From contig NZ_PYSY02000002.1 of NCBI RefSeq assembly GCF_003049685.1, positions 806,001 to 870,000 on the forward strand: DNA of 64,000 bases, read 5' to 3'. Below the pieces are notes generated by a model. It saw only the letters and a list, made by a program, of their open reading frames with translations. It did no database searches and was not told the DNA's origin. Origin of the DNA: Brucella pituitosa (GTDB taxonomy: Bacteria; Pseudomonadota; Alphaproteobacteria; Rhizobiales; Rhizobiaceae). This document shows, piece by piece, positions 1 to 11,584 of the stretch (its first letter is position 1; each line of letters opens with the position of its first letter). The translations under genes and the position numbers were made by a program.

Positions 1-327
1 TGGCAGCGTGTCCAGCTTGAAGCGACTTTTCCCAGATTTAACGACCAGATAACTGCCGTCGGCTTCCAAATTAACGTCGCCAGTTGCCTTCTTGGCAATG
101 TCTGCAAGCAACTTGCCTGCAACCGTGACTGTGCCGTCCTGACTGTCCAGAACCGGCAAGCTGGTGCTGATTTCCAGATCAAGATTTGTACCGGTGATGC
201 TCAGCTGTCCTTTGTCCGCGGACAAGAGCACGTTGCCAAGAATTGGGATTGTCGTTCTGGCCTCGACTGCCTTTGTCACGGTCGACAAGGCATGCGCAAG
301 CTGCGCTCGGTCAAGCGTTACCCGCAT
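1..327 (-). CDS. dnaN: Phage DNA polymerase III beta subunit (sliding clamp), N-terminal part
   Basis: The reading frame starts at ATG 325-327 and runs off the left edge, so only about 109 residues are seen. They match domain 1 of bacterial beta clamps: MRVTLDRAQLAHAL at the start, then TTIPILGNVLLSA, the strand SITGTNLDLEI, GTVTVAGKLLADI and SGKSRFKLDTLP near the edge. Beta clamps encircle DNA and tether polymerase. A clamp inside a phage early operon, after Sak4 and DUF669 genes, suggests that the phage supplies its own processivity factor. The start is preceded by the phage-wide ACACGAGGAG leader. This is unlikely to be the host dnaN given its prophage neighbours, but the C-terminal domains lie outside the window. 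Confidence 0.85.
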   Translation of the reverse strand, partial: MRVTLDRAQLAHALSTVTKAVEARTTIPILGNVLLSADKGQLSITGTNLDLEISTSLPVLDSQDGTVTVAGKLLADIAKKATGDVNLEADGSYLVVKSGKSRFKLDTLP

Positions 328-333
328 GGGTTT

Positions 334-347
334 CTCCTCGTGTTGGT
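334..347 (-). promoter_or_regulatory. Start-associated leader repeat before dnaN
   Basis: On the coding strand this reads CCAACACGAGGAG, 6-7 nt before the dnaN ATG. It is one of eleven copies of the same leader in the prophage. The GAGGAG part is a Shine-Dalgarno site; the CCAACAC part is not needed for that. Confidence 0.75.
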
Positions 348-383
348 GGTAGGCGCGGCTGGTGACCGCGCCGTGGTTGGTTC

Positions 384-943
384 TTACTTAGACCAGGGAC
401 GGCTGCCCGCAGCTTTTGCAGGCTGCGCTGGCTTGTTGTTGTTTGCAGCTGCAGGGCGGTTGTCATTGGCTGGTCGCTGCGCTGCCGCCGCAGGCTGCTG
501 AGCGTCAATGCTCGGCTCAGGCACGTTATTTTCGTCGGGGAAGAAATATTTCTTGATCTCGGCGCGCGCCGGATACTGGCCGTCCTTTGAAGGCTTGCCG
601 AGGGCCACTCGCACCGTGAACGACTTGAAGAGCAGGTCGTCGGTGTCTTCTACCGAGGACATTTCGAGCGCGCGGCAAAGGCTGGCGAACTGCCGCTGGC
701 CGATCTCTGCGCCTGCGGATTCTTATTCTCGATGTTGTAGTTGTTGAACAGCTTGCGATCAGCATATTCAACAGGCTCGAGCACCTTCATCGTGGTTTTC
801 AGAATCGTGCCGCTGCCGGTAGATGTTGCGGCAACGTCGGCCGCTTCGATTTCCATCTTGTATGTGCCGTTCGGCAGCTCGGAATAGTCCGACTGCGTCG
901 TGTCGTGTTGGGTGGCGTCAAACGCCGTTCCAAGTCTCGCCAT
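384..943 (-). pseudogene. DUF669 phage protein (single-strand-binding type), frameshifted
   Basis: Two frames together give one DUF669-like protein. The first, from ATG 943, contains LPNGTYKMEIEAADV and EPVEYADRKLFNNYNI. The second continues with EIGQRQFASLCRALEM, then ALGKPSKDGQYPARAEIKKYFF and an Ala/Pro/Asn-rich tail ending at 384. The frame changes near 706-710: restoring one G in the coding-strand stretch GCAGAGATCGG gives GCG CAG GAG ATC GGC and rejoins the frames. DUF669 proteins usually sit beside Sak4/AAA_24 ATPases, as here, and are thought to act as phage single-strand-binding proteins. The defect may be a real mutation or a sequencing error; no slippery heptamer is visible. Confidence 0.75.
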
Positions 944-950
944 GTGTTAG

Positions 951-965
951 TTCCTCGTGTTGGTG
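951..965 (-). promoter_or_regulatory. Start-associated leader repeat before the DUF669 gene
   Basis: The coding strand reads CACCAACACGAGGAAC, about 7-8 nt before ATG 943. The last G of GAGGAG is changed to A in this copy. Confidence 0.65.
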
Positions 966-983
966 ATGTGGTGAATGCGCAGA

Positions 984-1226
984 TTAAGATTTTGCGCGAA
1001 ACACGGTGGGTCGGAAGAACCCACCGATGAAGCCAAGCGCAGCGCCAATCTGCCAAAGTGACAAGTGACCAGCATTCACGCCTAACGCTGCAAGGAATTC
1101 CTGCACTGTTTCAGTGAAGAAGAAACCGACAACCCATCCCGAAAACGCGCCAAAGAGAACGCCGATTAGCGGTGCAAAGAAAAGGATGGCGGCAACCGTG
1201 ACCAGTCCCGCTAGTGCTTTTTCCAT
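984..1226 (-). CDS. Small phage membrane protein, unknown function
   Basis: An 80-residue protein starting MEKALAGLVTVAA. It has two or three hydrophobic segments (roughly residues 5-40 and 55-72) with Gly-rich faces such as GVLFGAFSGWVVGFFF and IGAALGFIGGFF, so it should sit in the inner membrane. The ATG at 1224-1226 overlaps the TGA of the Sak4-like gene (TGATG), which implies translational coupling. A longer in-frame start at 1256 lies inside the upstream gene and has no better ribosome site. I do not recognise the family; a holin or a membrane anchor for replication is possible but unsupported. Confidence 0.6.
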   Translation of the reverse strand: MEKALAGLVTVAAILFFAPLIGVLFGAFSGWVVGFFFTETVQEFLAALGVNAGHLSLWQIGAALGFIGGFFRPTVFRAKS

Positions 1227-1999
1227 CAAGCAGCCTCCTGCAGCGTGACCGGCCAATACTTCGCAAGCTCGGCGAAGCCCTGCCCTTTGCGGTATGGAAC
1301 GGCGTCGGGCATTGAATAGCGGTTCTTGGCATTGAAGCCAGCACCTTCATTCAGATGGATCTGGCGCTCTTTGCCGCCCTCTGCATGAGCGACCTTTGTC
1401 TGGCGCGCGACTTCCTTTTCCTTGATTGAAACGCGATAGTTCATGAACGCCACAACGTCAGACTTCTCGCGAACAAGTGCGTTGGCGCGCTTGTGAAGCT
1501 TCGGCTGATACCTCGAATAAGGATCGGTCGTCGGGCTATCGAACCGGACAATCTCGGGGTGGGCAAGGATGACCACATAAATGCCAGCTTGCGCGAGCGC
1601 CGACAGGGCCGACATGAGCTCATTCCATTCGGTGTCAGCTTCCACGTAGCCTTTTCCGAATCCAGCTTCCTCAATACTGGTGATGCCAAGGCGGGCACAG
1701 GTCGCAGCCCAGACAAGCGGTTCGAGGCCGTCCGCGCTGTCAATAATGACGGTGCGCCGATCGTGCTCAACTGTCAGCAGTTCGCCGATAATGTTGAGCA
1801 AGTCGTCGAAGCTTTCAATCGTGCCTGGCGTTGCCATTTCGACGTCGGACGGCGGACGCTCGCCTTCTGTGGCCAGATAGATCGGATCTGGAAACTCAGC
1901 GGCAAGACTGGTCTTTCCGATGCCGTCGACGCCATACAAAAGCATGACTGGCGGGTCGTTTCTCTTCGTCGATTTGAGGCTTGATAGGCTGATAGCCAT
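1226..1999 (-). CDS. Sak4-like RecA-fold phage ATPase (AAA_24)
   Basis: A 257-residue P-loop protein. Walker A is GVDGIGKTS at about residues 23-31; a Walker B-like strand RTVIIDSADGL follows at about 84-94; the later strand AGIYVVILAHPEIV and the segment RYQPKLHKRANALVREKSDVVAFMNYRV fit the AAA_24/Sak4 family of phage single-strand-annealing ATPases. Sak4 proteins promote homologous recombination with a phage SSB, and the DUF669 gene lies two genes downstream. The start chosen (ATG 1997-1999, MAISLSSLKS) follows a variant of the phage leader repeat. A longer in-frame start at 2128 would swallow the leader and overlap the preceding gene. Confidence 0.8.
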   Translation of the reverse strand: MAISLSSLKSTKRNDPPVMLLYGVDGIGKTSLAAEFPDPIYLATEGERPPSDVEMATPGTIESFDDLLNIIGELLTVEHDRRTVIIDSADGLEPLVWAATCARLGITSIEEAGFGKGYVEADTEWNELMSALSALAQAGIYVVILAHPEIVRFDSPTTDPYSRYQPKLHKRANALVREKSDVVAFMNYRVSIKEKEVARQTKVAHAEGGKERQIHLNEGAGFNAKNRYSMPDAVPYRKGQGFAELAKYWPVTLQEAA

Positions 2000-2005
2000 A
2001 AGTAA

Positions 2006-2023
2006 CTCCCCGTGTGTGTTTGG
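2006..2023 (-). promoter_or_regulatory. Start-associated leader repeat before the Sak4-like gene
   Basis: The coding strand reads CCAAACACACACGGGGAG, 6 nt before the ATG at 1999. This copy has GGGGAG in place of GAGGAG. Confidence 0.6.
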
Positions 2024-2061
2024 TTGGTAGTTAGTGGCGGAGCGAACCCCGCCAAGTTTGC

Positions 2062-2910
2062 TTATTGCAGCTGCAGCATTGGCACCGAGCCGCCCGGCAG
2101 CATCGTGGTTGGCAACTGGCCATTCCACTTTTCAGCTTGCGTCAGAGCCACAAGACCGGGATTTTCGCGAAGTGCATCGCCGCGTGCCTTGATCGAAGTC
2201 GCTTCTGCATCACCCTTAATCCGGATTGCTTCGGCTTCTGCATTCGCTTTTGCACGTACCGCGTCAGCGTTGGCCTTTGCCTGTGTGACCGTGATTTCTG
2301 CCTGCACCTTCTCACGTTCGGCGTTCTGGCGAAGTTTCTGCACCTCCACCTCTGCAAGCATGCGTTGCTCGATGCTGGCCTCGTAAGCATCTGAGAAGTC
2401 GATATTCTCAATCTGCACACTGTCGATGATGACCGGGCCTTTCACCGAACTTTGAATCGCAGAAGCGACTTCAAGATTAAGGCGGGATCGCTCCTGAATT
2501 GCTGCTACTGCAGTGAACTTGCCGAACACGGTTTTGAGGTCTTCATTCACTCGTCGATCGACGAGCCGAGACAAAAGACCATCCTCCCCGCCGTAGACGC
2601 TGTAGACTTCTGTCACCTTGTCGGCTGGAATTCGATAATTGACCGACAGGGAAAGAACCGCTGACTGCTGGTCTTTCGAGTAAGCTGGCACTTCCTTATA
2701 GAGCTGAGCTCGCGACTGGACTGAGACCTTCACCACCTCTTCGATCCAAGGTGTTTTGAAACCCAGACCAGGTTGAGCAGTACCCACAAGCGCGCCGTTG
2801 CGCAGCAGAACGCCTCGTTCGCCTTGGTCGATTGTGTACCAAGAGCCGAAAACAACTGTCAGCGTGATGATGAATGCAAAAAATCCGAAAATAGCTGCGA
2901 GAATACGCAT
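2062..2910 (-). CDS. Phage SPFH/prohibitin-family membrane protein
   Basis: A 282-residue protein with one N-terminal membrane segment (residues 2-22, ILAAIFGFFAFIITLTVV) followed by an SPFH (band 7) domain: TIDQGERGVLLRNG, PGLGFKTPWIEEVVKVSV, then NYRIPADKVTEVY. Residues about 180-250 form an Ala/Glu/Lys-rich coiled coil typical of prohibitins and HflK/C. Such proteins oligomerise on the inner membrane; HflKC modulates FtsH, which degrades the lambda CII activator. A similar role in the lysis-lysogeny choice is inference. The start at 2910 follows the phage leader repeat and overlaps the upstream stop (TAATG). Confidence 0.85.
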   Translation of the reverse strand: MRILAAIFGFFAFIITLTVVFGSWYTIDQGERGVLLRNGALVGTAQPGLGFKTPWIEEVVKVSVQSRAQLYKEVPAYSKDQQSAVLSLSVNYRIPADKVTEVYSVYGGEDGLLSRLVDRRVNEDLKTVFGKFTAVAAIQERSRLNLEVASAIQSSVKGPVIIDSVQIENIDFSDAYEASIEQRMLAEVEVQKLRQNAEREKVQAEITVTQAKANADAVRAKANAEAEAIRIKGDAEATSIKARGDALRENPGLVALTQAEKWNGQLPTTMLPGGSVPMLQLQ

Positions 2911-3020
2911 TATCTTCTCCTCGTGGTTGGTTTGGTGGTGGTTTTGATGATGATCTGAGCAACGCCGACCGCAATGATCCCGCATAGGACGAGGCCGCCG
3001 ATTAGAGCTAACGCGTTCAT
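2910..3020 (-). CDS. Tiny phage membrane peptide (36 aa)
   Basis: Reads MNALALIGGLVLCGIIAVGV then a Lys/Thr/Arg tail (KTTTKPTTRRR). One membrane span covers residues 3-24, with a basic C-terminus that is probably cytoplasmic. Its ATG (3018-3020) overlaps the TGA of the gene before and its TAA overlaps the ATG of the SPFH gene. The leader repeat for the SPFH gene lies inside its last codons and accounts for the sequence KPTTRRR. It may be a real peptide or simply an open leader; overlaps on both sides favour translation. Confidence 0.5.
   Translation of the reverse strand: MNALALIGGLVLCGIIAVGVAQIIIKTTTKPTTRRR
2917..2930 (-). promoter_or_regulatory. Start-associated leader repeat before the SPFH gene
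   Basis: The coding strand reads CCAACCACGAGGAG, 6 nt before ATG 2910. It is embedded in the end of the 36-codon gene. Confidence 0.7.
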
Positions 3021-3118
3021 GCCAGCCTCAATCCGATCATCATGGCCAGCAGGATAAGCGACCCGATCAGCCAGACTGGCGCAGAAGTTGTCAGCGTGGG
3101 GAACCGTGGGTAGGTCAC
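3017..3118 (-). CDS. Tiny phage membrane peptide (33 aa)
   Basis: A 33-residue frame from GTG (3116-3118): MTYPRFPTLTTSAPVWLIGS followed by a hydrophobic stretch LILLAMMIGL and RLA. There is one predicted membrane span at about residues 15-31. Its start overlaps the stop of the upstream gene as GTGA, and its stop overlaps the next ATG, so it is one link in a chain of coupled small genes. No family is recognised. Confidence 0.5.
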   Translation of the reverse strand: MTYPRFPTLTTSAPVWLIGSLILLAMMIGLRLA

Positions 3119-3264
3119 AACAGCACCCATGAGTAAAAGCCGATGGCCAGAGCTAATGCTGCAACAACTAACAGCCCTTGGACGAAGCGATCACCAAGGC
3201 CCAGCGTACTTTCGCTGGACAAGATGCGGTCGTCTTCGACTACGTAGTCTTTGAAGGGCGCCAT
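3115..3264 (-). CDS. Small phage membrane protein (49 aa)
   Basis: Begins MAPFKDYVVEDDRILSSEST and ends in a membrane span at about residues 29-48 (QGLLVVAALALAIGFYSWVL). The acidic N-terminus and C-terminal anchor suggest a tail-anchored topology. The ATG (3262-3264) overlaps the upstream TGA (TGATG), and the TGA overlaps the next GTG. The function is unknown. Three consecutive tiny membrane proteins before a prohibitin-like membrane protein suggest a membrane-acting module, which is inference. Confidence 0.55.
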   Translation of the reverse strand: MAPFKDYVVEDDRILSSESTLGLGDRFVQGLLVVAALALAIGFYSWVLL

Positions 3265-3569
3265 CAAGCTACTCCCCTCGTCTTTGTTTTTGCGGTCAGC
3301 TTCACACCCTTGGTGAAATCGACCGGAATGACATTGTCTTCTTCTGTGCCGATCTCAGAGCCGCCACCGCCGTCGCCATCATTGGCCGGTGGTTCGACTT
3401 CGAAGCGCGAAACTTCAATCGTCCCAAGCCCGGTGCCTGGTATCCAGAACCGCACTGTTAGGAACATGCAGCCATCTCGATCGCCGATAATGATGCCCTT
3501 CCATCCTGTCAGCTTGTGGGTCACAATTGAGCCGGGCAGATCCCAGCAGTCACCGCACTCGCAAGTCAC
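3264..3569 (-). CDS. Phage hypothetical protein, 101 aa
   Basis: Starts at GTG 3567-3569, overlapping the stop of the gene before (GTGA). The N-terminus CECGDCW may bind a metal. A compact beta-rich segment follows (VTHKLTGWKGIIIGDRDGCM), with strands typical of a small SH3-like barrel such as KLTGWKGII, then an acidic Gly-rich linker (NDGDGGGGSEIG) and a C-terminal VIPVDFTKGVKLTAKTK. I do not recognise a named family. Its place in the early operon suggests a DNA-metabolism accessory protein, but the sequence does not prove it. Confidence 0.65.
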   Translation of the reverse strand: MTCECGDCWDLPGSIVTHKLTGWKGIIIGDRDGCMFLTVRFWIPGTGLGTIEVSRFEVEPPANDGDGGGGSEIGTEEDNVIPVDFTKGVKLTAKTKTRGVA

Positions 3570-3769
3570 GCTGCACCCCGCTTCGTTCTGCTGAAGGACA
3601 CAGGAGCGTTCGAAACATACCGACCGTCTTTAAGGACGGCAGTGTCTCGGGCATGCAGCTTCTGCGCGGCTGTTCGATAAGGCTTGCGGTTCGTCGTGTC
3701 CCGCTCACCAGTCCGCGTGAATTTGGTTTGGTAAGCCTTGTGTGGCTCACGCAAGTTATGGGATTTCAT
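3566..3769 (-). CDS. Small basic phage protein, 67 aa
   Basis: Starts MKSHNLREPHKAYQTKF and is rich in Arg and Lys (about a quarter of residues), with no hydrophobic core or membrane span. It ends KRGAA, and its stop overlaps the next GTG. The ATG at 3767-3769 has a strong AGGAGG site 7 nt upstream. That site lies inside an inverted repeat (3778-3792). It could be a nucleic-acid-binding protein from its charge alone; no family is recognised. Confidence 0.6.
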   Translation of the reverse strand: MKSHNLREPHKAYQTKFTRTGERDTTNRKPYRTAAQKLHARDTAVLKDGRYVSNAPVSFSRTKRGAA

Positions 3770-3777
3770 TGATATTC

Positions 3778-3792
3778 CTCCTGTTAGGAGGT
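3778..3792 (-). promoter_or_regulatory. Inverted repeat containing the Shine-Dalgarno site
   Basis: The 15 bases are CCTCCT-GTT-AGGAGG on the plus strand, a perfect 6-bp inverted repeat with a 3-base spacer. In minus-strand RNA the AGGAGG used by the 67-aa gene can pair with its own CCTCCT. This could hide the ribosome site. The stem is short, so the effect is uncertain. Confidence 0.4.
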
Positions 3793-3849
3793 TGATCTGT
3801 GGCCGGTCAAAAATACGTAGGTTTATAATTCCGACGCGGCCATCGTTGC

Positions 3850-4128
3850 TCAGGCTGCTATTGCGCCCGGCTCGTAGTTATCGTTCGCGGCTTCTAGCGC
3901 ACGAATGCGTGGCATTGCGATATAACTGACGCAGTGATTGGCCGTGGACCATCCACCGTTCGAAACACACCGCACAACAATGCGGTCGGCTGTAGGTTTT
4001 GGTATCGGACGGCGCAGAATTGAGGCTACTGTCGATCTGGGCAGGCTAAGCGCGTTTCCAATCTCAGTCGGAGTGGCGCCCGCCTCGTGCATACGATGCA
4101 CCTCTTCTATTGTTTCATAATCTTTCAT
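3850..4128 (-). CDS. Small helix-turn-helix phage protein
   Basis: A 92-residue protein starting MKDYETIEEVHRMHEAGATP. Residues about 18-40 (TPTEIGNALSLPRSTVASIL) form a clear helix-turn-helix of the resolvase/MerR-like kind, and RRPIPKPTADRIVVR follows. The C-terminal part (SNGGWSTANHCVSY and ALEAANDNYEPG) is not recognised. The ATG at 4126-4128 directly follows a leader repeat, which decides against the longer in-frame start at 4296. Probably a DNA-binding regulator or replication accessory protein of the phage. Confidence 0.65.
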   Translation of the reverse strand: MKDYETIEEVHRMHEAGATPTEIGNALSLPRSTVASILRRPIPKPTADRIVVRCVSNGGWSTANHCVSYIAMPRIRALEAANDNYEPGAIAA

Positions 4129-4131
4129 GCT

Positions 4132-4144
4132 CTCCTCGTGTTGG
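4132..4144 (-). promoter_or_regulatory. Start-associated leader repeat before the HTH gene
   Basis: The coding strand reads CCAACACGAGGAG, 3 nt before ATG 4128, with a second CCAACA block just upstream. Confidence 0.7.
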
Positions 4145-4236
4145 TGTTGGTTGACAAATGGCCTTGGTGAAGCCATCTGTCTGGTCGGCCCGGGTGGTAC
4201 TGGGCAAGGAAACCAGCGTGTAGAAGCGGCGTAAGC

Positions 4237-4248
4237 CCTCCTCGTGTA
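4237..4248 (-). promoter_or_regulatory. Orphan copy of the leader repeat
   Basis: The coding strand reads TTACACGAGGAGGG with no start codon within the usual distance. It is probably a remnant of a lost gene start. Confidence 0.5.
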
Positions 4249-4309
4249 AGCGCTGGGATTACGAGGCGGAGCGAGCAGCGGGTGGTGCCGGCTCATAAAC
4301 TCCGCCTTT

Positions 4310-5158
4310 TTATGCTTTCGCCGCCTTATATTGCGACCAGATAATGGCGGCGAATTCTTGCCTGTCGGATTCGTCTAGGGCAGCCCATGCATCCCAGAAT
4401 GCCTGACGATTCTTGTCCTTATTAGACGCCACTGCTTTGGCAGCGTCGTCGGCAATGACATCAAACGCTTTGTCGGCAGTTATTGGCTTGGTATTCGGTG
4501 CTGGTCGAGCGCTCACTTTTTCACCCGCTTCGGCACGGGCGATGAGACTTTCGCGCTTGTCGGCGGTAAGCTTAATGAGCGCGTCCATTTCAACGCCACT
4601 GTCAAGGCTGGTATTCGCAATTTTTTGGGCATCATCGCCAAGCTCACGTGCGCGACGCAGCTTACGATTGATGTCAACCTTGGACGAACCTGTGACTTCT
4701 GCGAGTTCGGCTGCGAATTGTTTGTTCCCGCGCCCGGTAGTTCGTAAAGTGGAACAATTTGTTTCACTTTCTGACTTACTAATCTCACTCCAAATGACCT
4801 GCCTCCGCAAGATATGTGCGGCTTCCTGTGCTGGCGACAGTTCGGATCGAGCCAGATTTTCATCGATCTCCATCAGTTCAGCACGAAGTTCATCTACTTC
4901 GTAGACCTCACATTCGATCACTTCATGGCCGAGAGACTGCATGGCAAGTAAGCGATGCCGTCCGTAGATGAGGATGGGTACACGCCCCCATTCCTCACCA
5001 TCAATCACCATCGATTCAACCACGCGGACAGCAGGCGGATTCATCAGCCCGACCTCAGAGATGCTTTTTGCTATCTCTGCAACCTTTTCCATATTCGCGC
5101 CGCGCATGCGTTTATCGTCTATATGGATGTCCTGAATATCATACCGCCTGCGTGCCAT
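4310..5158 (-). CDS. ParB-domain phage protein
   Basis: A 282-residue protein. The N-terminal ParB/Srx fold covers about residues 5-105: IHIDDKRMRGANMEKVAEIAKSI, GLMNPPAVRVVE, then the nucleotide-binding style motif ILIYGRHRLLAMQSLG (GxRR-type box written GRHR), and ENLARSELSPAQEA. A central HTH-like segment (NKQFAAELAEVTGSSKVDINRKL) resembles the KorB/ParB DNA-binding helices, and the C-terminus is Ala/Lys-rich. Such proteins bind DNA and often hydrolyse CTP; phage versions occur near replication genes and DNA-modification genes. The upstream ParB-like gene ends 1 bp before its ATG, so the two are probably cotranslated. Confidence 0.8.
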   Translation of the reverse strand: MARRRYDIQDIHIDDKRMRGANMEKVAEIAKSISEVGLMNPPAVRVVESMVIDGEEWGRVPILIYGRHRLLAMQSLGHEVIECEVYEVDELRAELMEIDENLARSELSPAQEAAHILRRQVIWSEISKSESETNCSTLRTTGRGNKQFAAELAEVTGSSKVDINRKLRRARELGDDAQKIANTSLDSGVEMDALIKLTADKRESLIARAEAGEKVSARPAPNTKPITADKAFDVIADDAAKAVASNKDKNRQAFWDAWAALDESDRQEFAAIIWSQYKAAKA

Positions 5159-5159
5159 T

Positions 5160-6299
5160 TTAAGCTACCTTACGGATGTCTTTATTGAAGACGACTTCGC
5201 GGAGCTTGCCACCCGCCTTCCAAGAAATGAAATGATGAACAAATGCTCGCAGCCAACTTTCACGAGACAGCTTTAATTTGTGCTCGGAGTTGAACAATGC
5301 CTTATGAAGAATAAGAGCGGGATTGCCACGTTTCATGTCTTCCCCATTCCGAACACGTCGGAAGAAGTCATTAATGTCGTTCGAAATAAATCCGAGTGAC
5401 AGAAGATGAAGGGCAGCTACGCCACAAACAGACGGGCCAGCGCCCTTAACTGGCGTACCAGCAGCGCTAGCCGCTTCTTCAATCTGGTTGCGATTCTCGT
5501 GGAAATAGTCGTCGACCTCTGAAGGTGTCGGTGATCGATCAAAATATGTCTCGAAAGCAAAGGACGCGATTGCTGACAGGCGCACATAGTCGTTTACGCC
5601 GGCAATGGCTAATCGGTCCTTTGCTTGACGCTTATCGCCGATATCAACAGTCCGCATTGACTGCTTTGTAACACCGTATGAAACAACCGTCTCGATAGAC
5701 TTTCCAGTCAGAAGAACCCCAAAAGAGCGATGCTGACCATCGTTGACTGTTCCATCCTTGCAAATGATGATGGATTCACCGTTGACCTCAAAACGACCTT
5801 CGGCGATATCCCGCATGATCTTGGCAAGGTTTAGGGCTTTTACGCGACGATTACCGTCGTTGTTCAACAGAAGGATTTGAGCGCGTTCAGATGTGATGAT
5901 GTGAACATTTGCATGTGGCTCGCCGTCGGTAATCATTCGACGATGCCAGGCTATCGCCTTATTAAACTCAGGCGTGCCGCTGTAAACGAAGAAGCCTTCA
6001 TCGTTGTCTGCATTGATCAGACGCGCTGCGATACGGGCTGCCTCTTCAAAACGCCCTTCACGCACCAAGCGGAAGACCTTGTCGTGTTCAGTTTCATTCG
6101 TCGATGCATGCTTAACGGCTGCCGACCGAGTAGCAAGACCGGACGTAATTGCCGCCTTCGGCGCATCTTCTAAAATACGCGGCTTAGCTGCAGCCGCTGG
6201 CTTATTAAACAAAGCCTCCGCGCGAGCCCGCTCTGGCGTGTATCTTTTGTTACGGGTCATTACAGGAATTTCTCGGCCTCTGGCCTGCACAATCTGCAT
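5160..6299 (-). CDS. ParB/Srx-like phage protein with DGQHR motif
   Basis: Starts at ATG 6299 (MQIVQARGREIPV), 7 nt after a leader-repeat ribosome site, giving 379 residues; a longer in-frame start at 6374 lacks such a site. After a basic, Ala-rich N-terminus, residues about 130-215 hold a ParB/sulfiredoxin-like core: NLAKIMRDIAEGRFEVNGES, CKDGTVNDGQHRSFGVLLTG and YGVTKQSMRTVDIGDKRQAKD. The rest is helical. The DGQHR family is common in phages and unannotated islands; its activity is not established to my knowledge. It is the first large gene of the leftward operon, directly upstream of ParB. Confidence 0.7.
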   Translation of the reverse strand: MQIVQARGREIPVMTRNKRYTPERARAEALFNKPAAAAKPRILEDAPKAAITSGLATRSAAVKHASTNETEHDKVFRLVREGRFEEAARIAARLINADNDEGFFVYSGTPEFNKAIAWHRRMITDGEPHANVHIITSERAQILLLNNDGNRRVKALNLAKIMRDIAEGRFEVNGESIIICKDGTVNDGQHRSFGVLLTGKSIETVVSYGVTKQSMRTVDIGDKRQAKDRLAIAGVNDYVRLSAIASFAFETYFDRSPTPSEVDDYFHENRNQIEEAASAAGTPVKGAGPSVCGVAALHLLSLGFISNDINDFFRRVRNGEDMKRGNPALILHKALFNSEHKLKLSRESWLRAFVHHFISWKAGGKLREVVFNKDIRKVA

Positions 6300-6306
6300 A
6301 TCAATT

Positions 6307-6319
6307 CTCCTCATGGTTG
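6307..6319 (-). promoter_or_regulatory. Start-associated leader repeat before the DGQHR gene
   Basis: The coding strand reads CAACCATGAGGAG, 7 nt before ATG 6299. The central CACGAG is CATGAG in this copy. Confidence 0.65.
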
Positions 6320-6333
6320 TACTTTGTTTGGTT

Positions 6334-6359
6334 GCATGCTTATGGGTAGATGTCGGTGG
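6334..6359 (+). repeat. 26-bp direct repeat, copy 1
   Basis: GCATGCTTATG then a variable 6 bases then TGTCGGTGG. It shares 21 of 26 bases with 6656-6681 in the same orientation. Each copy lies about 130 bp upstream of a microprotein gene (starts 6470 and 6782), so it may be a duplicated promoter or operator element. Confidence 0.6.
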
Positions 6360-6469
6360 GGAGCAAATAGCCACTCTGCAGCTTCGGCTGTTCTCATGTA
6401 GGCGAAGCGGCGCATCACTGCGTTCGCTGAGAGGCGGCTTTAACCGTCAGAGCGTGGAGGTATTGGCTT

Positions 6470-6586
6470 ATGCTGAAACCTAAGTTGGTCGCAGTTCGTG
6501 CTTACGTTCGTCTGCGATTTGGCCGACTTGAGCATGTCAGTGCTCATTGGCGGTCGTGGCCGGGACAACTGGCCTTCGATTTCTAG
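6470..6586 (+). CDS. Phage microprotein A (38 aa), paralogue of microprotein B
   Basis: Reads MLKPKLVAVRAYVRLRFGRL and ends GQLAFDF. Over the last 29 residues 19 are identical to microprotein B at 6782-6904: the shared pattern is RxYVRxRxGRLExVxxHxRSWPxQLxFxF. The nucleotide sequences differ at many third positions and use different Arg codons, which is what selection on a protein produces. A GGAGG site lies 7 nt before the ATG. The protein is small, basic and amphipathic, with an aromatic C-terminus. It lies on the plus strand within the region crossed by the leftward early transcript. The function is unknown. Confidence 0.7.
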   Translation: MLKPKLVAVRAYVRLRFGRLEHVSAHWRSWPGQLAFDF

Positions 6587-6655
6587 GCTGACGTTACAAA
6601 CCAGCTCAATCCCCACCGGCACCTATTCTTTTGTTCTATATGCTTCTATTCTTGC

Positions 6656-6681
6656 GCATGCTTATGTGAGAGTGTCGGTGG
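6656..6681 (+). repeat. 26-bp direct repeat, copy 2
   Basis: Second copy of the GCATGCTTATG/TGTCGGTGG element, 126 bp before the start of microprotein B, against 136 bp for copy 1 and microprotein A. Confidence 0.6.
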
Positions 6682-6758
6682 CCGCTTTCCCCGTGCTCGA
6701 TGTGTGTCGTGTTAGCAAACACTGGTCATCCATGAATGGCCGTCAGTCTAAACACCCA

Positions 6759-6774
6759 CCAAACACGCGAGGAA
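6759..6774 (+). promoter_or_regulatory. Start-associated leader repeat before microprotein B
   Basis: Reads CCAAACACGCGAGGAA, 7 nt before ATG 6782. It supports microprotein B being a real gene despite its size. Confidence 0.65.
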
Positions 6775-6781
6775 CAGCAGC

Positions 6782-6904
6782 ATGAAAAAGATTATTGAAC
6801 GTCTCGTCCACATACGCTCTTATGTACGGTTCAGACTTGGAAGGCTTGAAAACGTCCGAGAGCACACCCGTTCCTGGCCTAATCAGCTTTCATTCAACTT
6901 CTAA
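6782..6904 (+). CDS. Phage microprotein B (40 aa), paralogue of microprotein A
   Basis: Starts MKKIIERLVHIRSYVRFRLG and ends RSWPNQLSFNF. The central and C-terminal part is clearly homologous to microprotein A at 6470-6586 (19 of 29 identical). It is basic and probably one amphipathic helix followed by the RSWP turn and an aromatic tail. The ATG is preceded by the phage leader repeat, and a 26-bp repeat shared with gene A lies 126 bp upstream. Together these look like a tandem duplication of element plus gene. I do not recognise the family and assign no function. Confidence 0.75.
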   Translation: MKKIIERLVHIRSYVRFRLGRLENVREHTRSWPNQLSFNF

Positions 6905-6984
6905 TATTGTACGGCCACCGGCACTCACTAATAAGCACGCGCAACATCGCCAGCCTCATATGTGAGGCCAGCGCTCCTGTTGGT

Positions 6985-7038
6985 CTACGGTGGGTATTTG
7001 TCGTTGACGGCGAAAAGCGCTCTGATCGAATTGGTCAT
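6985..7038 (-). CDS. Possible leader peptide of the leftward operon (17 aa; 48 aa from an upstream start)
   Basis: From ATG 7036-7038, which has the leader repeat before it, the frame gives MTNSIRALFAVNDKYPP and a stop at 6985. The same frame is open from another ATG at 7129-7131, preceded by AAAGGAG, which would give a 48-residue basic protein containing RSRSSRDRTDSYKKSQ. It is the first translatable unit after the leftward promoter. It could be a leader peptide or an antiterminator-like basic peptide; neither can be shown from sequence. Confidence 0.4.
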   Translation of the reverse strand: MTNSIRALFAVNDKYPP

Positions 7039-7044
7039 GATTTT

Positions 7045-7059
7045 CTCCTCGTGTATTGG
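7045..7059 (-). promoter_or_regulatory. Start-associated leader repeat before the leader peptide
   Basis: The coding strand reads CCAATACACGAGGAG, 6 nt before ATG 7038. Confidence 0.6.
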
Positions 7060-7172
7060 CTGGTCGTCTTGGGATTTTTTGTAGCTATCTGTCCGGTCGC
7101 GGGAGCTCCGGCTTCTCTTTGTGCAACTCATTCTCCTTTTGTGCGTCCCGACATTCTGTGTGTCGGCTGATG

Positions 7173-7206
7173 ATTGGAAGATATACGTGATTCGTATTTA
7201 TGTCAA
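7173..7206 (-). promoter_or_regulatory. Leftward early promoter (PL-like)
   Basis: On the minus strand TTGACA (7201-7206) is followed after 15-17 bases by TATATC/TATCTT, a good sigma-70 promoter. An ATACG-N5-CGTAT operator fills the spacer (7183-7197), and a second lies just upstream of the -35 box (7216-7230). Repressor binding should block RNA polymerase. The early replication operon lies directly downstream. Confidence 0.7.
7183..7197. promoter_or_regulatory. Repressor operator OL1
   Basis: ATACG-TGATT-CGTAT, a perfect inverted repeat with a 5-bp spacer, located between the -35 and -10 boxes of the leftward promoter. Confidence 0.8.
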
Positions 7207-7215
7207 CGAGATGTG

Positions 7216-7230
7216 ATACGTTTTTCGTAT
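7216..7230. promoter_or_regulatory. Repressor operator OL2
   Basis: ATACG-TTTTT-CGTAT, exactly 33 bp from OL1 and about 10 bp upstream of the leftward -35 box. Confidence 0.8.
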
Positions 7231-7245
7231 TTTTTAAAAGGATAA

Positions 7246-7270
7246 CAAAAAAGGCCGCTTGCGCGACCTT
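7246..7270 (-). terminator. Terminator after the repressor gene
   Basis: In the minus-strand RNA AAGGUCGC-GCAA-GCGGCCUU forms an 8-bp stem with one wobble pair and is followed by a run of U. It lies 23 bp after the repressor stop and before the leftward promoter, separating the two transcripts. Confidence 0.7.
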
Positions 7271-7292
7271 GAATATTCAAACGATAATCGTA

Positions 7293-7880
7293 TTAGAGTG
7301 AGCGCCAAAATTCCCTTGGCATCCGCATTACAAACTTCCTAGCCCACACAATTTCTACATCTTCGATATCCGGAGCATTTGTACTGGTTAAAGTGTAGAG
7401 GCCAGGAGCCACACCGCGACGAACGGTTTTTATAAGGACGCGACCATCTTGCAGTTCAACCATGCAAGTCTTGCCGAGTGCGTCTTCGGGTAGCATCTCG
7501 ATTCCTGAGTAGGCGACGAGATCCCCATCCTCAAAAATGGGATACATGCTGTCGCCGCGAACAATAGCGCCAACGGTGTCTTTCGGCAGCGCGCTACTGA
7601 TGGTCACGTCGTACAGTGGATCGCCATCGTCGATCGGGTAAACTTCGGCGCCAGCACCTACATATCCAAGCACAGGTATCTTTGTGCTACGATCCGGCAG
7701 TGCCATTCCGCTCAGCTTACTCATTATGACCATTTCATTGGCCTTGAGCTGACGCTTGCCTTTCAGAATTTCACTTATCGCAGGCTGTCGGTTTAATCCG
7801 AGCTCTTTGGCAACTTGTTCTTGCGTCAACCCACAAGCATCAAGCGCTTCAGCGAACCATTTAATTATATCCGTTTCCAT
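7293..7880 (-). CDS. CI-type phage repressor with S24 (LexA-like) peptidase domain
   Basis: From ATG 7878-7880, 195 residues. Residues about 6-55 are a helix-turn-helix (GLTQEQVAKELGLNRQPAIS then EILKGKRQL). The C-terminal S24 domain has the serine motif VRGDSMYPIFEDGDLV and a catalytic lysine in GRVLIKTVRRG; the self-cleavage site is probably in GYVGAGAEVYP. It should repress both early promoters through the four ATACG-N5-CGTAT sites around it, and RecA-stimulated self-cleavage would couple induction to DNA damage. An alternative longer frame to 8132 would run through the operators and is rejected. Confidence 0.9.
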   Translation of the reverse strand: METDIIKWFAEALDACGLTQEQVAKELGLNRQPAISEILKGKRQLKANEMVIMSKLSGMALPDRSTKIPVLGYVGAGAEVYPIDDGDPLYDVTISSALPKDTVGAIVRGDSMYPIFEDGDLVAYSGIEMLPEDALGKTCMVELQDGRVLIKTVRRGVAPGLYTLTSTNAPDIEDVEIVWARKFVMRMPREFWRSL

Positions 7881-7915
7881 AGAAGATATATCGCATAATC
7901 GTATAACTGTGTCAT

Positions 7916-7930
7916 ATACGCATTTCGTAT
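7916..7930. promoter_or_regulatory. Repressor operator OR2
   Basis: ATACG-CATTT-CGTAT, located 36 bp upstream of the repressor start and 8 bp before the rightward -35 box. It probably also affects the repressor's own promoter. Confidence 0.8.
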
Positions 7931-7937
7931 TTTCGAG

Positions 7938-7966
7938 TTGACAGCAAAATACGTTTATCGTATATG
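7938..7966 (+). promoter_or_regulatory. Rightward early promoter (PR-like)
   Basis: TTGACA (7938-7943), a spacer of exactly 17 bases, then TATATG (7961-7966). Operator OR1 (7949-7963) covers the spacer and the start of the -10 box. The row of small plus-strand genes begins 75 bp downstream. Confidence 0.8.
7949..7963. promoter_or_regulatory. Repressor operator OR1
   Basis: ATACG-TTTAT-CGTAT, 33 bp from OR2, the same spacing as the leftward pair. Confidence 0.8.
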
Positions 7967-8015
7967 TTTTTCCAACAGCACGAAGACACCCAGACGAACG
8001 GGCCGATCTGCTGAA

Positions 8016-8032
8016 CCAACCCACACGAGGAG
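8016..8032 (+). promoter_or_regulatory. Start-associated leader repeat before 8041
   Basis: Reads CCAACCCACACGAGGAG, 8 nt before ATG 8041. Confidence 0.7.
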
Positions 8033-8040
8033 TACCAATT

Positions 8041-8352
8041 ATGACTGCAGTTTCACCGAGAAGAAGAAGATCGCCAGCACCTCGCAAGAACGAAGTAATC
8101 GGCGGCGGATTCTTTGTATTCCGCCGCGGCAAAATAACCGGCCGCGTCAGCGTAGCTACTACCCTGCCTTATGAGCACGGCTCTTTTGAGCAAGCACTGG
8201 CTGAGGCAACACGCCTCGCCAAGCTCTGCCCGGGCGAAACATACGAAGTTTTCCAGACAAGCGGCGCTATTGCTACCAGCAATGAGGCCTTGTTTGACGC
8301 GCTGCCCGCCAGCGCAGAGCCTGCCGACGAAGCCATGGCGGAGGCTGCGTGA
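8041..8352 (+). CDS. Phage hypothetical protein, first gene of the rightward operon
   Basis: A 103-residue protein with a basic start (TAVSPRRRRSPAPRKNEV), then a small alpha/beta unit (GGGFFVFRRGKITGRVSVAT, FEQALAEATRLAKLCPGETY and EVFQTSGAIA) and an acidic Ala-rich tail. The ATG follows a leader repeat and lies 75 bp after the PR -10 box, where Cro sits in lambda. It has no helix-turn-helix, so it is not an evident Cro. The family resembles small conserved rhizobial prophage proteins of unknown role. Its TGA overlaps the next ATG. Confidence 0.65.
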   Translation: MTAVSPRRRRSPAPRKNEVIGGGFFVFRRGKITGRVSVATTLPYEHGSFEQALAEATRLAKLCPGETYEVFQTSGAIATSNEALFDALPASAEPADEAMAEAA

Positions 8353-8576
8353 TGAACCGCGCCCTGCTGGAAATGCTCGCCGACATGGAGCCAGACCTGC
8401 ACACCGAAGTGCATCGTGCTTGCAGTGACGAACCAATGCGTCGCCCGGATCACCGCGCCAAAAAGCACGCTCGCCCCATGCCTTGGATACGATACGCAGC
8501 GCGCGAAGCCGTTGAGATGACGGTTGTCATTGGCTTCTTTGTGACGGTTGGCGCAGTAGGGCTCGGCGTCACATGA
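8352..8576 (+). CDS. Small phage membrane protein (74 aa)
   Basis: From ATG 8352 (TGATG overlap with the gene before) the frame gives MNRALLEMLADMEPDLHTEV, then a basic segment RRPDHRAKKHARPMPW and a C-terminal hydrophobic stretch VVIGFFVTVGAVGLGV at about residues 56-72. This looks like a tail-anchored inner-membrane protein. The function is unknown; it is expressed first from PR, so an early host-takeover or immunity role is possible but is inference. Confidence 0.6.
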   Translation: MNRALLEMLADMEPDLHTEVHRACSDEPMRRPDHRAKKHARPMPWIRYAAREAVEMTVVIGFFVTVGAVGLGVT

Positions 8577-8669
8577 TTTATCGCGAAAGATAGCGACGGG
8601 GCGTAGCGCCTCAGGATTTCCCAAAAATCGACGATCCACGCGTTTTCACGCCACGGGTCGTCACGCTTA

Positions 8670-8687
8670 CCAACACCACACGAGGAG
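8670..8687 (+). promoter_or_regulatory. Start-associated leader repeat before 8693
   Basis: Reads CCAACACCACACGAGGAG, 5-8 nt before the tandem ATG codons at 8693 and 8696. It is one of the best copies. Confidence 0.7.
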
Positions 8688-8692
8688 CACCA

Positions 8693-8923
8693 ATGATGTC
8701 CGCAAGACAAATCCTTACCGCCGACGAGTTCATTGCTCAGGGAACGACCGCAGCAGCGATCCTTTCGATTGCCCGTTGGTATCGCGTGAGCGACCCGGCG
8801 ACTGCCGCAAAGATCAAAGACATTGCATATGATGTGTCACGCAAGACGGGCGAGCAGTTCCGTATGCGCCGCGTGCGACCGGTTAACGACAATCGCCGTC
8901 CTTTCAAGCGGAGGGCGGCGTGA
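8693..8923 (+). CDS. Phage hypothetical protein, 76 aa
   Basis: Starts with two ATG codons (8693 and 8696) after a leader repeat. The sequence SARQILTADEFIAQGTTAA, then ILSIARWYRVSDPATAAKIK, is helical and is followed by a basic tail with the PVNDNRRPFKRR pattern that recurs in rhizobial phage proteins. The stop overlaps the next ATG. No domain is recognised; the basic tail may bind nucleic acid. Confidence 0.6.
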   Translation: MMSARQILTADEFIAQGTTAAAILSIARWYRVSDPATAAKIKDIAYDVSRKTGEQFRMRRVRPVNDNRRPFKRRAA

Positions 8924-9111
8924 TGGACATACGAGCCCCAGACATACGCGGCAGCAATATCGACGCCGCATTCCTCAACGCGTTGCGGCTAGGCCCGCAG
9001 CGCATAGGGAACCACGGCATACCAGCGCCCGTTGCTCGCCGTCTGGCAGCAGCAGGTCGGGCTGTCGTCGTTGGTGATGAGATGCGTTATGTTGGTGAGG
9101 TCCTGCGATGA
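8923..9111 (+). CDS. Phage hypothetical protein, 62 aa
   Basis: Begins MDIRAPDIRGSNIDAAFLNA and ends AVVVGDEMRYVGEVLR. A GTG three bases earlier is an alternative start. The ATG overlaps the previous TGA, and the stop overlaps the next ATG (ATGA). No membrane span or recognised motif is seen. It belongs to the coupled rightward operon. Confidence 0.55.
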   Translation: MDIRAPDIRGSNIDAAFLNALRLGPQRIGNHGIPAPVARRLAAAGRAVVVGDEMRYVGEVLR

Positions 9112-9617
9112 ATAATTATCCACAGGCTGCAGGCGTCAGCGTCCAAAATAAGAACAAATGCGGATCAGATGGAGATTCCGCAGCCGCCCCATTCCTGCAA
9201 CGGGTGTCATCCCCACGTGCGCAGGCGTTGGAGGAAGCGGCTAAATGGCACGAGAGCGAAGCAGAAGGTTATGAGGCTGAAATCGGTGGTACTGACGTTA
9301 CTGGCCTAATGCTCGCTAAAGAACACCGTATCAGCGCTATAGCCATTCGTGCCCTTTCTTCTCAGCCTGTATCGGATGGCTGGTTGCCTACGCATCGGCA
9401 TAAGAAGCGCGGCACCGAGTACGCCCTGATCGGCATTGGAAAGATGCAGGCTGACAATTGGCAGGTGAGCCGTGATGGCTTTGACCAGTCAATTGATATG
9501 GAAGAAGTCGCAATCTATCGCAGCGTAGATGATGGCGCGATCTGGGTACGCCCACGTGAAGAGTTTGAAGACGGTCGCTTCGTCACCCTCCCAGCCTCAC
9601 CGGGAGCGTCGGAATGA
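9108..9617 (+). CDS. Phage protein with DUF1653-like C-terminal domain
   Basis: A 169-residue protein. After a low-complexity start, a helical region (EEAAKWHESEAEGYEAEI and LAKEHRISAIAIRAL) leads to a C-terminal beta domain at about residues 92-165: HRHKKRGTEYALIGIGKMQA, MEEVAIYRSVDDGAIWVRP and EEFEDGRF. That arrangement resembles the short beta-rich protein seen in many phages that combines a KRGTxY start with a WVRPxxEFxDGRF end. The activity is not known. The start overlaps the previous gene by ATGA and the stop overlaps the next ATG. Confidence 0.65.
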   Translation: MNNYPQAAGVSVQNKNKCGSDGDSAAAPFLQRVSSPRAQALEEAAKWHESEAEGYEAEIGGTDVTGLMLAKEHRISAIAIRALSSQPVSDGWLPTHRHKKRGTEYALIGIGKMQADNWQVSRDGFDQSIDMEEVAIYRSVDDGAIWVRPREEFEDGRFVTLPASPGASE

Positions 9618-9913
9618 GAGAGCTTTCAATAGATGCCCGCGTAATTGCTCAATCGGTTTTTGGTTTTGGTGAAAAATCAACACTCCGGGTAGGAGGGACC
9701 AGATCGGAAAACGTCCTAACCGACAGGTCTTTAACGGCTATCAATGAGTTGATCGAACATGGCTTTGTTCAGTCCCGACCTTTCAACGATTACGGTCGGA
9801 TAGAGTATCAAGGCACCGCGAAGCTATCTCAAATCCCTAAGCTAAGTTTTGCGGAAATGGAAACTCATGGACAGTTTTCACTAACCCGCCCGACAGGAGG
9901 AAGCAATGTCTAA
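9614..9913 (+). CDS. Phage hypothetical protein, 99 aa
   Basis: Starts MRELSIDARVIAQSVFGFGE, with NVLTDRSLTAINELIEHGFV in the middle, which reads like a winged-helix recognition region, and a short beta hairpin (RPFNDYGRIEYQGTAKL). A DNA-binding role is possible but weakly supported. It overlaps the previous stop by ATGA and the next start by 8 bases. Confidence 0.55.
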   Translation: MRELSIDARVIAQSVFGFGEKSTLRVGGTRSENVLTDRSLTAINELIEHGFVQSRPFNDYGRIEYQGTAKLSQIPKLSFAEMETHGQFSLTRPTGGSNV

Positions 9914-10547
9914 CCTTATTAGTCTGATTGACGCTCTGTTAGAACTTGATGCGAAAGGCGCTCTCGTTCCGCATGGCATCGGTGGACACGCAAGAACACT
10001 GCTTCAAAGGTGCAAGGATGAGCTTAACACCCGCCCCGCGCCTGCCGCTACAGATACGGGACTGGTGACGGTAGGATATGTGACACCCGGATGGCTCGCT
10101 AAGCATTGTTCGGCGCATACTATTACTGCACAACCAACTCCAGCATGGACAGAAGCAGTCGTCACCCGCTCGCAGGCCGAGGCCATCATTGCGGTGGAAC
10201 GGGCTATGCGCAAAACCGCAGAGCAACGTCTCGCACAATCTCAAGATGACTTGAAGCAAGTGAGAGCCGACAACGCGGCGCTGACTGTGGAGATAGAACG
10301 TCTGCAAAAGATCAACGCCATGATTATGGGCGATGATGAAGCTGCACCACGATACACGACTAAGCGGATGAAGCAGGAAGTCGAGCGCGCCACCCAAGTT
10401 ATGCGCGGAGAAGCATCAGATCGAGAAGCGTACGTCAGATCCCTCGAAACCCAACTCGCGGCAGCAAGGAAAGCGCTCGAGGAAATCGCCAGTTTCACCC
10501 AGACAACCGATCTTTGTGGTGGCAAGAACGCGCCCGCGCCGCCTTGA
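9906..10547 (+). CDS. Phage coiled-coil hypothetical protein, 213 aa
   Basis: The N-terminal part is compact (SNLISLIDALLELDAKGALV and VTVGYVTPGWLAKHC). From about residue 95 to 200 it is a long charged helix with heptad character (AERTMRK-like AVERAMRKTAEQRLAQ, NAALTVEIERLQKINAM and SLETQLAAARKALEEIAS), so it should dimerise through a coiled coil. The C-terminus is short and Pro-rich. Phage ea-type accessory proteins often look like this. It starts at ATG 9906, preceded by AGGAGGAA inside the previous gene. Confidence 0.6.
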   Translation: MSNLISLIDALLELDAKGALVPHGIGGHARTLLQRCKDELNTRPAPAATDTGLVTVGYVTPGWLAKHCSAHTITAQPTPAWTEAVVTRSQAEAIIAVERAMRKTAEQRLAQSQDDLKQVRADNAALTVEIERLQKINAMIMGDDEAAPRYTTKRMKQEVERATQVMRGEASDREAYVRSLETQLAAARKALEEIASFTQTTDLCGGKNAPAPP

Positions 10548-10556
10548 GACCGCCAC

Positions 10557-11362: not shown

Positions 11363-11370
11363 ACCGTGTG

Positions 11371-11460: not shown

Positions 11461-11508
11461 CTAAAGCTGCCACACCAAAATCAAACAATTGATATCGTTG
11501 AAGATTTT

Positions 11509-11584
11509 TGGTGAGCGCGCAGGGATTCGAACCCTGGACCTACTGATTAAAAGTCAGTTGCTCTACCGGCTGAGCTACGCGCTC
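11509..11584 (-). tRNA. tRNA-Lys(TTT), prophage attachment gene
   Basis: A complete cloverleaf on the minus strand: acceptor GAGCGCG/CGCGCTC, D-arm GTAGCTCAGCCGGTAGAGC, anticodon loop CTTTTAA with anticodon TTT, and T-arm CAGGGTTCGAATCCCTG. The terminal CCA is encoded (11509-11511). Phage genes lie against its 3' end, the usual geometry when a tyrosine integrase uses the tRNA 3' half as the crossover site and the element restores the gene. Confidence 0.95.

What the first reader, a model, noticed from the sequence alone, without database searches (positions are those of the whole stretch)
334..8687. A start-associated leader repeat (CCAACACACGAGGAG) marks most phage transcription-unit heads on both strands
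Eleven copies occur in 8.4 kb (334, 951, 2006, 2917, 4132, 4237, 6307, 7045 on the minus strand; 6759, 8016, 8670 on the plus strand), almost always 3-8 nt before an ATG. Only GAGGAG is explained by the Shine-Dalgarno rule; the CCAACAC part is conserved for another reason. Internal, coupled genes lack it. Cluster K mycobacteriophages have similar start-associated sequences of unknown role. It may be a shared translational or regulatory signal of this phage, for example a binding site for a phage RNA- or DNA-binding protein.
Basis: partly seen in the sequence, partly recalled or inferred. Interest (0 to 1): 0.75.

Follow-up and report, generated by a model that had tools for sequence, protein, structure and literature searches.

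The report
Repeated RNA leader before phage genes
A group of bacterial viruses puts a similar small RNA signal (an A/C-rich stretch and ribosome site, sometimes with a hairpin) in front of many unrelated genes, which points to a shared, apparently undescribed way of controlling their translation.

Summary
The repeat is real, but the stated consensus is a chimera. The core is CACGAGGR behind an A/C-rich tract, 3-8 nt before an ATG. With tract and ATG it gives 11 rows (10 sites) in the 5.52-Mb genome, all in this 80-kb 16-3-like prophage. All 11 listed positions carry the core with at most one mismatch; 10 precede a start codon. It does not mark transcription-unit heads. Relatives in Rhizobium and others use a different Shine-Dalgarno flank, ACCACCACA-n-GAGGAGAC; in 24 homologous gene pairs the core is on the Brucella-group side in 20 and on the other side in 0. 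About a quarter of leader families also have a hairpin with free stem and ACCA loop; 54 of 61 unique YYACCAR hairpins precede an SD and start, against 2 of 53 on the opposite strand and 401 of 11,663 with other loops. ACCA is enriched in the tract too. Rfam searches gave no match. Best reading: an RNA-level translation-initiation element, probably read by an unidentified ACCA-binding factor. Nearest known kind: start-associated sequences of cluster K mycobacteriophages, whose sequence definition it fails.

The parts
334..373 (-). Full leader of the DNA polymerase sliding-clamp gene (start 327): hairpin 352-372 (GGCGCGG-UCACCAG-CCGCGCC), 12-nt A/C-rich tract, SD GAGGAG
   Evidence: R1 covariance model 48.9 bits (a training row differs from it by one base, so not independent); fold z -2.67; gene phrog_947
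4132..4178 (-). Full leader of a gene with a weak HTH match (start 4128): hairpin with loop (U)CACCA(A), A/C tract, CACGAGGAG
   Evidence: R1 45.1 bits; fold z -4.24; PF25787 below its cut-off
951..973 (-). A/C tract + CACGAGGAA before the SSB-like gene (start 943)
   Evidence: gene families
2006..2054 (-). Leader of the Sak4-like gene (start 1999): UUCG-loop hairpin 2035-2054, A/C tract, CACGGGGAG
   Evidence: gene phrog_124
2917..2945 (-). ACCA-containing A/C tract + CACGAGGAG before the phrog_200-like gene (start 2910); no strong hairpin found
6307..6334 (-). A/C-rich tract + CATGAGGAG variant before the phrog_5931 gene (start 6299)
7045..7068 (-). A/C-rich tract + CACGAGGAG before a 17-codon ORF (start 7038)
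6754..6774 (+). ACCCACCAAACACGCGAGGAA leader before a 40-codon ORF (6782-6904)
8014..8032 (+). AACCAACCCACACGAGGAG leader before gene 8041-8352
8669..8687 (+). ACCAACACCACACGAGGAG leader before gene 8693-8923; an imperfect hairpin is predicted upstream at 8630-8662
   Evidence: fold z -1.55, not significant
4238..4246 (-). CACGAGGAG without a start codon: probably not a leader (falls in the frame of ORF 3850-4296)
11509..11558 (.). Right attachment repeat (50 bp) within tRNA-Lys 11509-11584; left copy at G000:C2:737201, so the prophage is 80.3 kb

Best explanation
A cis-acting mRNA leader module for translation initiation of mostly non-structural genes in 16-3-like phages of Rhizobiales. Shown from sequence: (1) the module sits immediately before start codons, on the sense strand; (2) full copies consist of a GC-rich hairpin with variable stem and conserved loop YYACCAR, an A/C-rich tract (10-17 nt in 69 of 79 sites) enriched in ACCA beyond its composition, and an SD with a group-specific flank (CAC|GAGGAG in Brucella/Ochrobactrum phages, mostly GAGGAG|AC in Rhizobium-type phages); (3) most copies lack the strict ACCA hairpin and keep the tract; (4) dozens of unrelated gene families share it. 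Inferred: ACCA in loop and tract is read by a common factor, phage- or host-encoded, that changes translation of these genes together; the hairpin usually ends 22-29 nt before the start codon, just behind where a 30S subunit would sit (footprint recalled), so it could act without blocking initiation. The factor and the sign of regulation are unknown.
For: Restriction to the prophage in the own genome. ACCACCACA...GAGGAGAC leaders in 16-3, TM3_3_14B, AP-16-3, X2_25. Of 102 Sak4 loci 58 are labelled A, 38 B, 6 neither; all 10 named Brucella/Ochrobactrum/Falsochrobactrum loci are A. A/C>=11 leaders: A set 67 protein families, 49 with CACGAGGR; B set 65 families, 1 with CACGAGGR, 42 with GGAGAC. 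In 24 homologous A/B pairs CACGAGGR is on the A side in 20 and on the B side in 0; GGAGAC on the B side in 14 and the A side in 4. Hairpin: 30 of 132 family representatives vs shuffled mean 0.9, max 5; 79 of 251 loop sites, chosen without regard to stem, have stems >=5 bp vs about 5 when arms are permuted, all four Watson-Crick types at 7 of 9 stem positions; 54 of 61 unique hairpins followed by SD + start vs 2 of 53 opposite-strand and 401 of 11,663 other loops; 22-29 nt to the start in 112 of 128 copies, redundant. ACCA enrichment in the tract z 11.9 (A, n=46), 12.5 (B, n=55; 11.6 with n=37 chosen by GGAGAC only). Tract unpaired 0.69 (A), 0.66 (B) vs 0.45 in 60 host leaders.
Against: No expression data; no trans-acting factor identified. 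Predicted accessibility of the SD is not above host (0.43 A, 0.50 B, 0.43 host). Only 14 of 67 A and 16 of 65 B representatives have the strict ACCA hairpin. Leaders without it do not make up with more ACCA copies in the last 20 nt (1.45 vs 1.43). Flanks are not absolute: 17 of 67 A families also show GGAGAC, two B loci have one A match each, 8 of 38 B loci rest on one match, 18 of 67 A families lack the core, and a single B-type leader lies in a same-genus genome (L432). Covariation on A1 used sites chosen for stem >=7; the permutation test is the fairer one. A second, mosaic Brucella-group prophage type carries the A flank without most 16-3-like early genes, so a phage-encoded factor is not required. 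22 of 33 long-gap genes of 16-3 have no leader and 2 of 59 short-gap genes do.
Confidence: 0.6

Rival explanations
1. An efficient generic ribosome site: the A/C tract is an unstructured standby/S1 landing region and the hairpin only insulates it from upstream RNA; no dedicated factor exists.
For: Tract is unpaired; any-loop hairpins are also enriched upstream (20 of 67 A, 23 of 65 B, vs shuffled means 1.7 and 2.9); the Sak4 leader in the window has a UUCG hairpin instead; most copies lack the ACCA hairpin.
Against: Loop YYACCAR is conserved while the stem varies; ACCA is enriched beyond A/C composition; SD accessibility is not raised; it was not found before host genes.
Confidence: 0.27
2. 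An mRNA processing or stabilising hairpin that defines new 5' ends inside the long early transcript.
For: Leaders lie inside same-strand gene runs; hairpins are GC-rich and followed by single-stranded RNA.
Against: The narrow spacing to the start codon and conserved SD flanks are not needed for processing; no cleavage data.
Confidence: 0.12
3. Recombination junctions: repeated leaders let genes be swapped or inserted between modules, and repetition is the result.
For: Nearly identical hairpin + tract leaders stand before unrelated genes (A02, A41, A47, A48; A12, A46, A52; A22, A33, A35).
Against: Recombination needs sequence identity, not a conserved loop on a freely varying stem; the element adjoins the start codon even after long gaps.
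Confidence: 0.12
4. A transcriptional element (promoter, operator or antitermination site) near gene starts.
For: Sits in intergenic gaps; hairpin plus linear element recalls nut-like sites (recalled).
Against: First genes after the annotated 16-3 promoters lack it; stems share no sequence, so no DNA operator; the hairpins are followed by A/C, not a U run; many copies per phage, beside start codons.
Confidence: 0.06

Closest known systems
Start-associated sequences (SAS/ESAS) of cluster K mycobacteriophages (PMC3203893, PMC12699233; passages read)
   Same: Short repeat over the SD, a few nt before mostly ATG starts, mainly in non-structural genes after large gaps, absent from the host, with conservation not explained by 16S pairing
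   Different: Consensus GGGATAGGAGCCC is not in this prophage part or the 16-3 half tested; ESAS is a conserved-sequence 17-bp inverted repeat that its authors thought unlikely to be an RNA hairpin, whereas here stem sequences are free and the loop is conserved
T4 RegB target sites and RegA operators (PMC3014915; passages read)
   Same: One phage-wide post-transcriptional signal at many early translation starts
   Different: RegB consensus GGAGRAYARAA occurs in 0 of 132 representative leaders; RegA sites are A+U-rich and unstructured; no RegB or RegA gene was sought
CsrA-type regulation (recalled; only a search listing with abstract starts was seen)
   Same: One short motif shown in a hairpin loop and again near the SD
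   Different: The motif in these loops is ACCA, not GGA; no link to CsrA was tested

Membership tests
Cluster K SAS | 13-bp GGGATAGGAGCCC with at most 2 deviations | tested here: not met
   Window: 2 matches, 0.88 expected, neither in the prophage; half of 16-3 (L009): 0. The rest of the prophage and the other half of 16-3 were not searched
Cluster K SAS | A few nt upstream of mostly ATG start codons, one orientation | tested here: met
   10 of 11 window sites; 14 of 16 prophage cores
Cluster K SAS | Associated with larger intergenic gaps and non-structural genes | tested here: met
   16-3: 11 of 33 genes with gap >60 nt, 2 of 10 with 21-60, 2 of 59 with <=20; one capsid-gene exception at 4109 (102 annotated CDS used, 7 nested or opposite-overlapping ones left out)
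Cluster K ESAS | 17-bp inverted repeats of conserved sequence upstream | tested here: not met
   Stem sequences vary freely; only the loop is conserved
Rfam 15 families | Match at or near a family threshold | tested here: not met
   Window 1-12000 at E<=1: only tRNA-Lys and a weak hit on its opposite strand; L009, L010, L013 at gathering: only int-alpA, elsewhere
CsrA binding sites | GGA in the hairpin loop (recalled) | tested here: inconclusive
   The hairpin class was selected by ACC-containing loops, so absence of GGA is built in; other hairpins were not examined for GGA
T4 RegB sites | GGAGRAYARAA | tested here: not met
   0 of 132 representative leaders
Ordinary host ribosome sites | Same element before host genes | tested here: not met
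   No match outside the prophage genome-wide; 0 of 60 host leaders with CACGAGGA

The most novel reading that the evidence does not exclude
16-3-like phages run a translational regulon: dozens of unrelated genes, mostly early, carry a leader that shows ACCA next to the ribosome site and often again in a hairpin loop, read by one dedicated RNA-binding factor, and the SD flank was changed in concert across the whole genome when the phages moved between host groups.
Probability: 0.38. Interest if true: 0.85.

Novelty: new variant of a known kind. Interest (0 to 1): 0.7.

Why it matters
Cluster K start-associated sequences have been unexplained since 2011 (PMC3203893; still called in need of verification in PMC12699233). 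A second case in unrelated Rhizobiales phages, with a covarying hairpin and a defined loop, makes the question testable: loop and ACCA tract are a ready bait for a binding factor, and two groups with different SD flanks but the same loop are natural controls. If a factor is found, it would show a phage steering translation of much of its early programme through one repeated RNA element.

Tried and rejected
Literal 15-mer consensus: rejected. Transcription-unit-head idea: rejected on the annotated 16-3 promoters. Host genus as sole cause: two other Ochrobactrum phages (50,000 of 59,782 bases of POI1126; 41,000 of 41,655 of POA1180) have none of three leader patterns, so host alone does not dictate it; a second prophage type in the same genus does carry it, but it shares the head module and some other genes with 16-3-like phages, so phage-versus-host determination stays open. 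A candidate factor, a 264-435-aa family near the terminase genes: no Pfam match in three members, and a locus without recognised leaders (L429) also has it, so not supported. Sponge RNA: no two ACCA hairpins within 250 nt in 157 loci. Signature A on the Sak4 tree is nearly one clade (two changes; many forks weakly supported), so the tree cannot separate host from phage ancestry. More ACCA copies in place of a missing hairpin: not borne out. Wider search: class sample of 289 genomes, besides the own genome three single weak hits; family sample of 294, 12 genomes with hits at E<=1e-4, own genus included; both with stricter filters. Literature: searches listed no description of this element; in PMC10460002, PMC5537653, PMC5492332, PMC2864571 and PMC11409702 only passages found by terms were read.
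Full report
Where it lies. Window 1-11558 is the right end of an 80.3-kb prophage between a 50-bp direct repeat of part of tRNA-Lys (G000:C2:737201 and 817509). Its Sak4-like protein is 82% identical to that of Rhizobium phage 16-3 and 96-98% to the three closest named genome loci, all Ochrobactrum/Brucella, so I take it for a 16-3-like prophage; such regions are reported as highly prevalent in Ochrobactrum (PMC5492332, passages). No phage record matches its DNA closely.

The observation. The stated 15-mer does not occur exactly. The true core is CACGAGGR: 8 exact copies in the window, all at 334-8687; the other three listed sites are one-mismatch variants. 10 of 11 sites precede an ATG by 3-8 nt; 4238-4246 has no start codon and falls in an open frame. 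With the A/C tract and the start codon the pattern gives 11 rows (10 sites) in 5.52 Mb, all in the prophage, reversed control 0. In the prophage 14 of 16 CACGAGGR sites precede an ATG ORF (one of them, 783902, without an A/C-rich tract); in 252 kb of host DNA there are 2 sites, neither before an ATG. Among 60 host leaders none has CACGAGGA, and 1 of 60 has 12 or more A/C in the 14 nt tested against 8 of 43 prophage leaders (crude ORF calling, few host genes).

Spread. In a family sample of 297 genomes 40 have a match, but 3 or more occur only in the own genus; in that genus 22 of 35 genomes have a match and 13 have none, up to 12 rows per genome, by eye mostly in prophage-sized stretches (the reversed control matched once). 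Two unrelated Ochrobactrum phages lack it.

Not transcription-unit heads. In annotated phage 16-3 the leader (A/C tract with CAC + SD) precedes 2 of 59 genes with an upstream gap of 20 nt or less, 2 of 10 with 21-60 and 11 of 33 with more than 60 (102 CDS used, seven nested or opposite-overlapping ones left out). The first genes after promoters PR, PL and Pc (as annotated) lack it. After gaps of 138-435 nt it still adjoins the start codon (the 1134-nt gap printed there shrinks to 164 if the left-out p071 is counted).

Two groups, two flanks. 16-3, TM3_3_14B, AP-16-3 and X2_25 use ACCACCACA-n-GAGGAGAC; X2_26 has a third form, AACGCMAACGGAGT. Of 102 Sak4 loci 58 are labelled A (3 or more CACGAGGR leaders, no B), 38 B (1 or more B leaders, at most one A), 6 neither; 8 of the 38 B loci rest on one match and two of them also have one A match. 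All 10 named Brucella/Ochrobactrum/Falsochrobactrum loci are A; the 10 named B loci include Rhizobium, Agrobacterium, Neorhizobium, Shinella, Devosia and Pseudaminobacter; Limoniibacter and Consotaella have neither. On a tree of 76 Sak4 proteins A (41 rows) is nearly one clade and B (29) is spread (many forks weak). Leaders with A/C>=11 of 14 and an SD: 623 rows in 67 protein families (A), 284 rows in 65 families (B); 49 A families and 1 B family have CACGAGGR; 42 B and 17 A families have GGAGAC. In 24 homologous A/B pairs the A side has CACGAGGR in 20 and the B side in 0; GGAGAC is on the B side in 14 and the A side in 4. So the A core, above all, changed in concert over many dispersed genes. 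Against this, one B-type leader lies in a same-genus genome (L432).

The hairpin. Upstream of the tract a number of leaders have a GC-rich hairpin with unrelated stems and loop YYACCAR. Representatives of 30 of 132 families have an ACCA-loop hairpin with stem >=6, against a shuffled mean of 0.9 (max 5). Of 251 unique sites chosen by loop, SD and start but not by stem, 79 have stems of >=5 bp; permuting arms gives about 5. All eight pairs of alignment A1 show compensating changes (98% paired, covariation 1.09 against at most 0.21 for slid partners), but those sequences were picked for stem >=7. 54 of 61 unique YYACCAR hairpins are followed by SD and start, 2 of 53 with the reverse-complement loop, 401 of 11,663 with other loops. 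The distance to the start codon is 22-29 nt in 112 of 128 copies (redundant). Model R1 finds 9 matches at E<=1 in the own genome, all in the prophage; two strong ones are in the window, 334-373 and 4132-4178. Rfam searches gave none.

Sequence beyond composition. In the tract, ACCA is enriched over within-tract shuffles: z 11.9 in A (46 leaders), 12.5 in B (55), 11.6 in B when chosen by GGAGAC only (37). Loop and tract thus share ACCA in both groups while the SD flank is group-specific. By my own pairing of the leader with the 16S tail (recalled), only AGGAG plus a G-U pair is accounted for.

Mechanism. Position and strand put the element in mRNA at translation initiation. The tract is predicted unpaired, but the SD is no more accessible than in host leaders, so 'more open ribosome site' alone is a weak account. 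I favour a factor that reads ACCA in the tract and, where present, the loop. This is inference: leaders without the hairpin do not have more ACCA, and no factor was found. Phage or host origin is open: a second prophage type of the same genus, with different early genes, carries flank A.

Compared with known systems. It behaves like the cluster K start-associated sequences (PMC3203893: position, gaps, non-structural genes, absence from host) but fails their sequence and inverted-repeat definitions where tested, so it is not filed as a member. No description was listed in the searches named under Tried and rejected.

Noticed in passing
window 384-943 (-): The SSB-like gene appears as two overlapping frames (650-943 and 384-662), while related SSB-like proteins in other phages are about 185-207 aa in one frame.
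   Followed up: no
window 6470-6586 and 6782-6904 (+): Two adjacent very small ORFs encode related peptides ending in SWPxQLxFxF; only the second has the leader.
   Followed up: no
G000:C2:737201-817558: The 80.3-kb element has two integrase-like genes (737314-738456 and 773388-774599) and what look like two sets of portal/terminase genes, so it may be a composite or nested prophage.
   Followed up: partly
L011 (phage X2_26): A third repeated leader, AACGCMAACGGAGT, before several genes.
   Followed up: no
L340, L364, L375 and the window leader 334-373: Nearly identical hairpin leaders stand before different genes, as if genes were inserted at the leader.
   Followed up: partly
L285, L417-L423: A second prophage type of the same genus group (integrase, Toprim, AAA_25; head module like TM3_3_14B) carries flank A leaders.
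   Followed up: partly
L432 about 1825: A single B-type leader in a same-genus genome, outside the 16-3-like prophage examined there.
   Followed up: no
L013 46107-46172: int-alpA RNA (RF02996) in Rhizobium phage X2_25.
   Followed up: no
L171: A viral contig piece with no 16-3-like protein among 14 ORFs has several ACC-rich leaders, perhaps an independent case.
   Followed up: no
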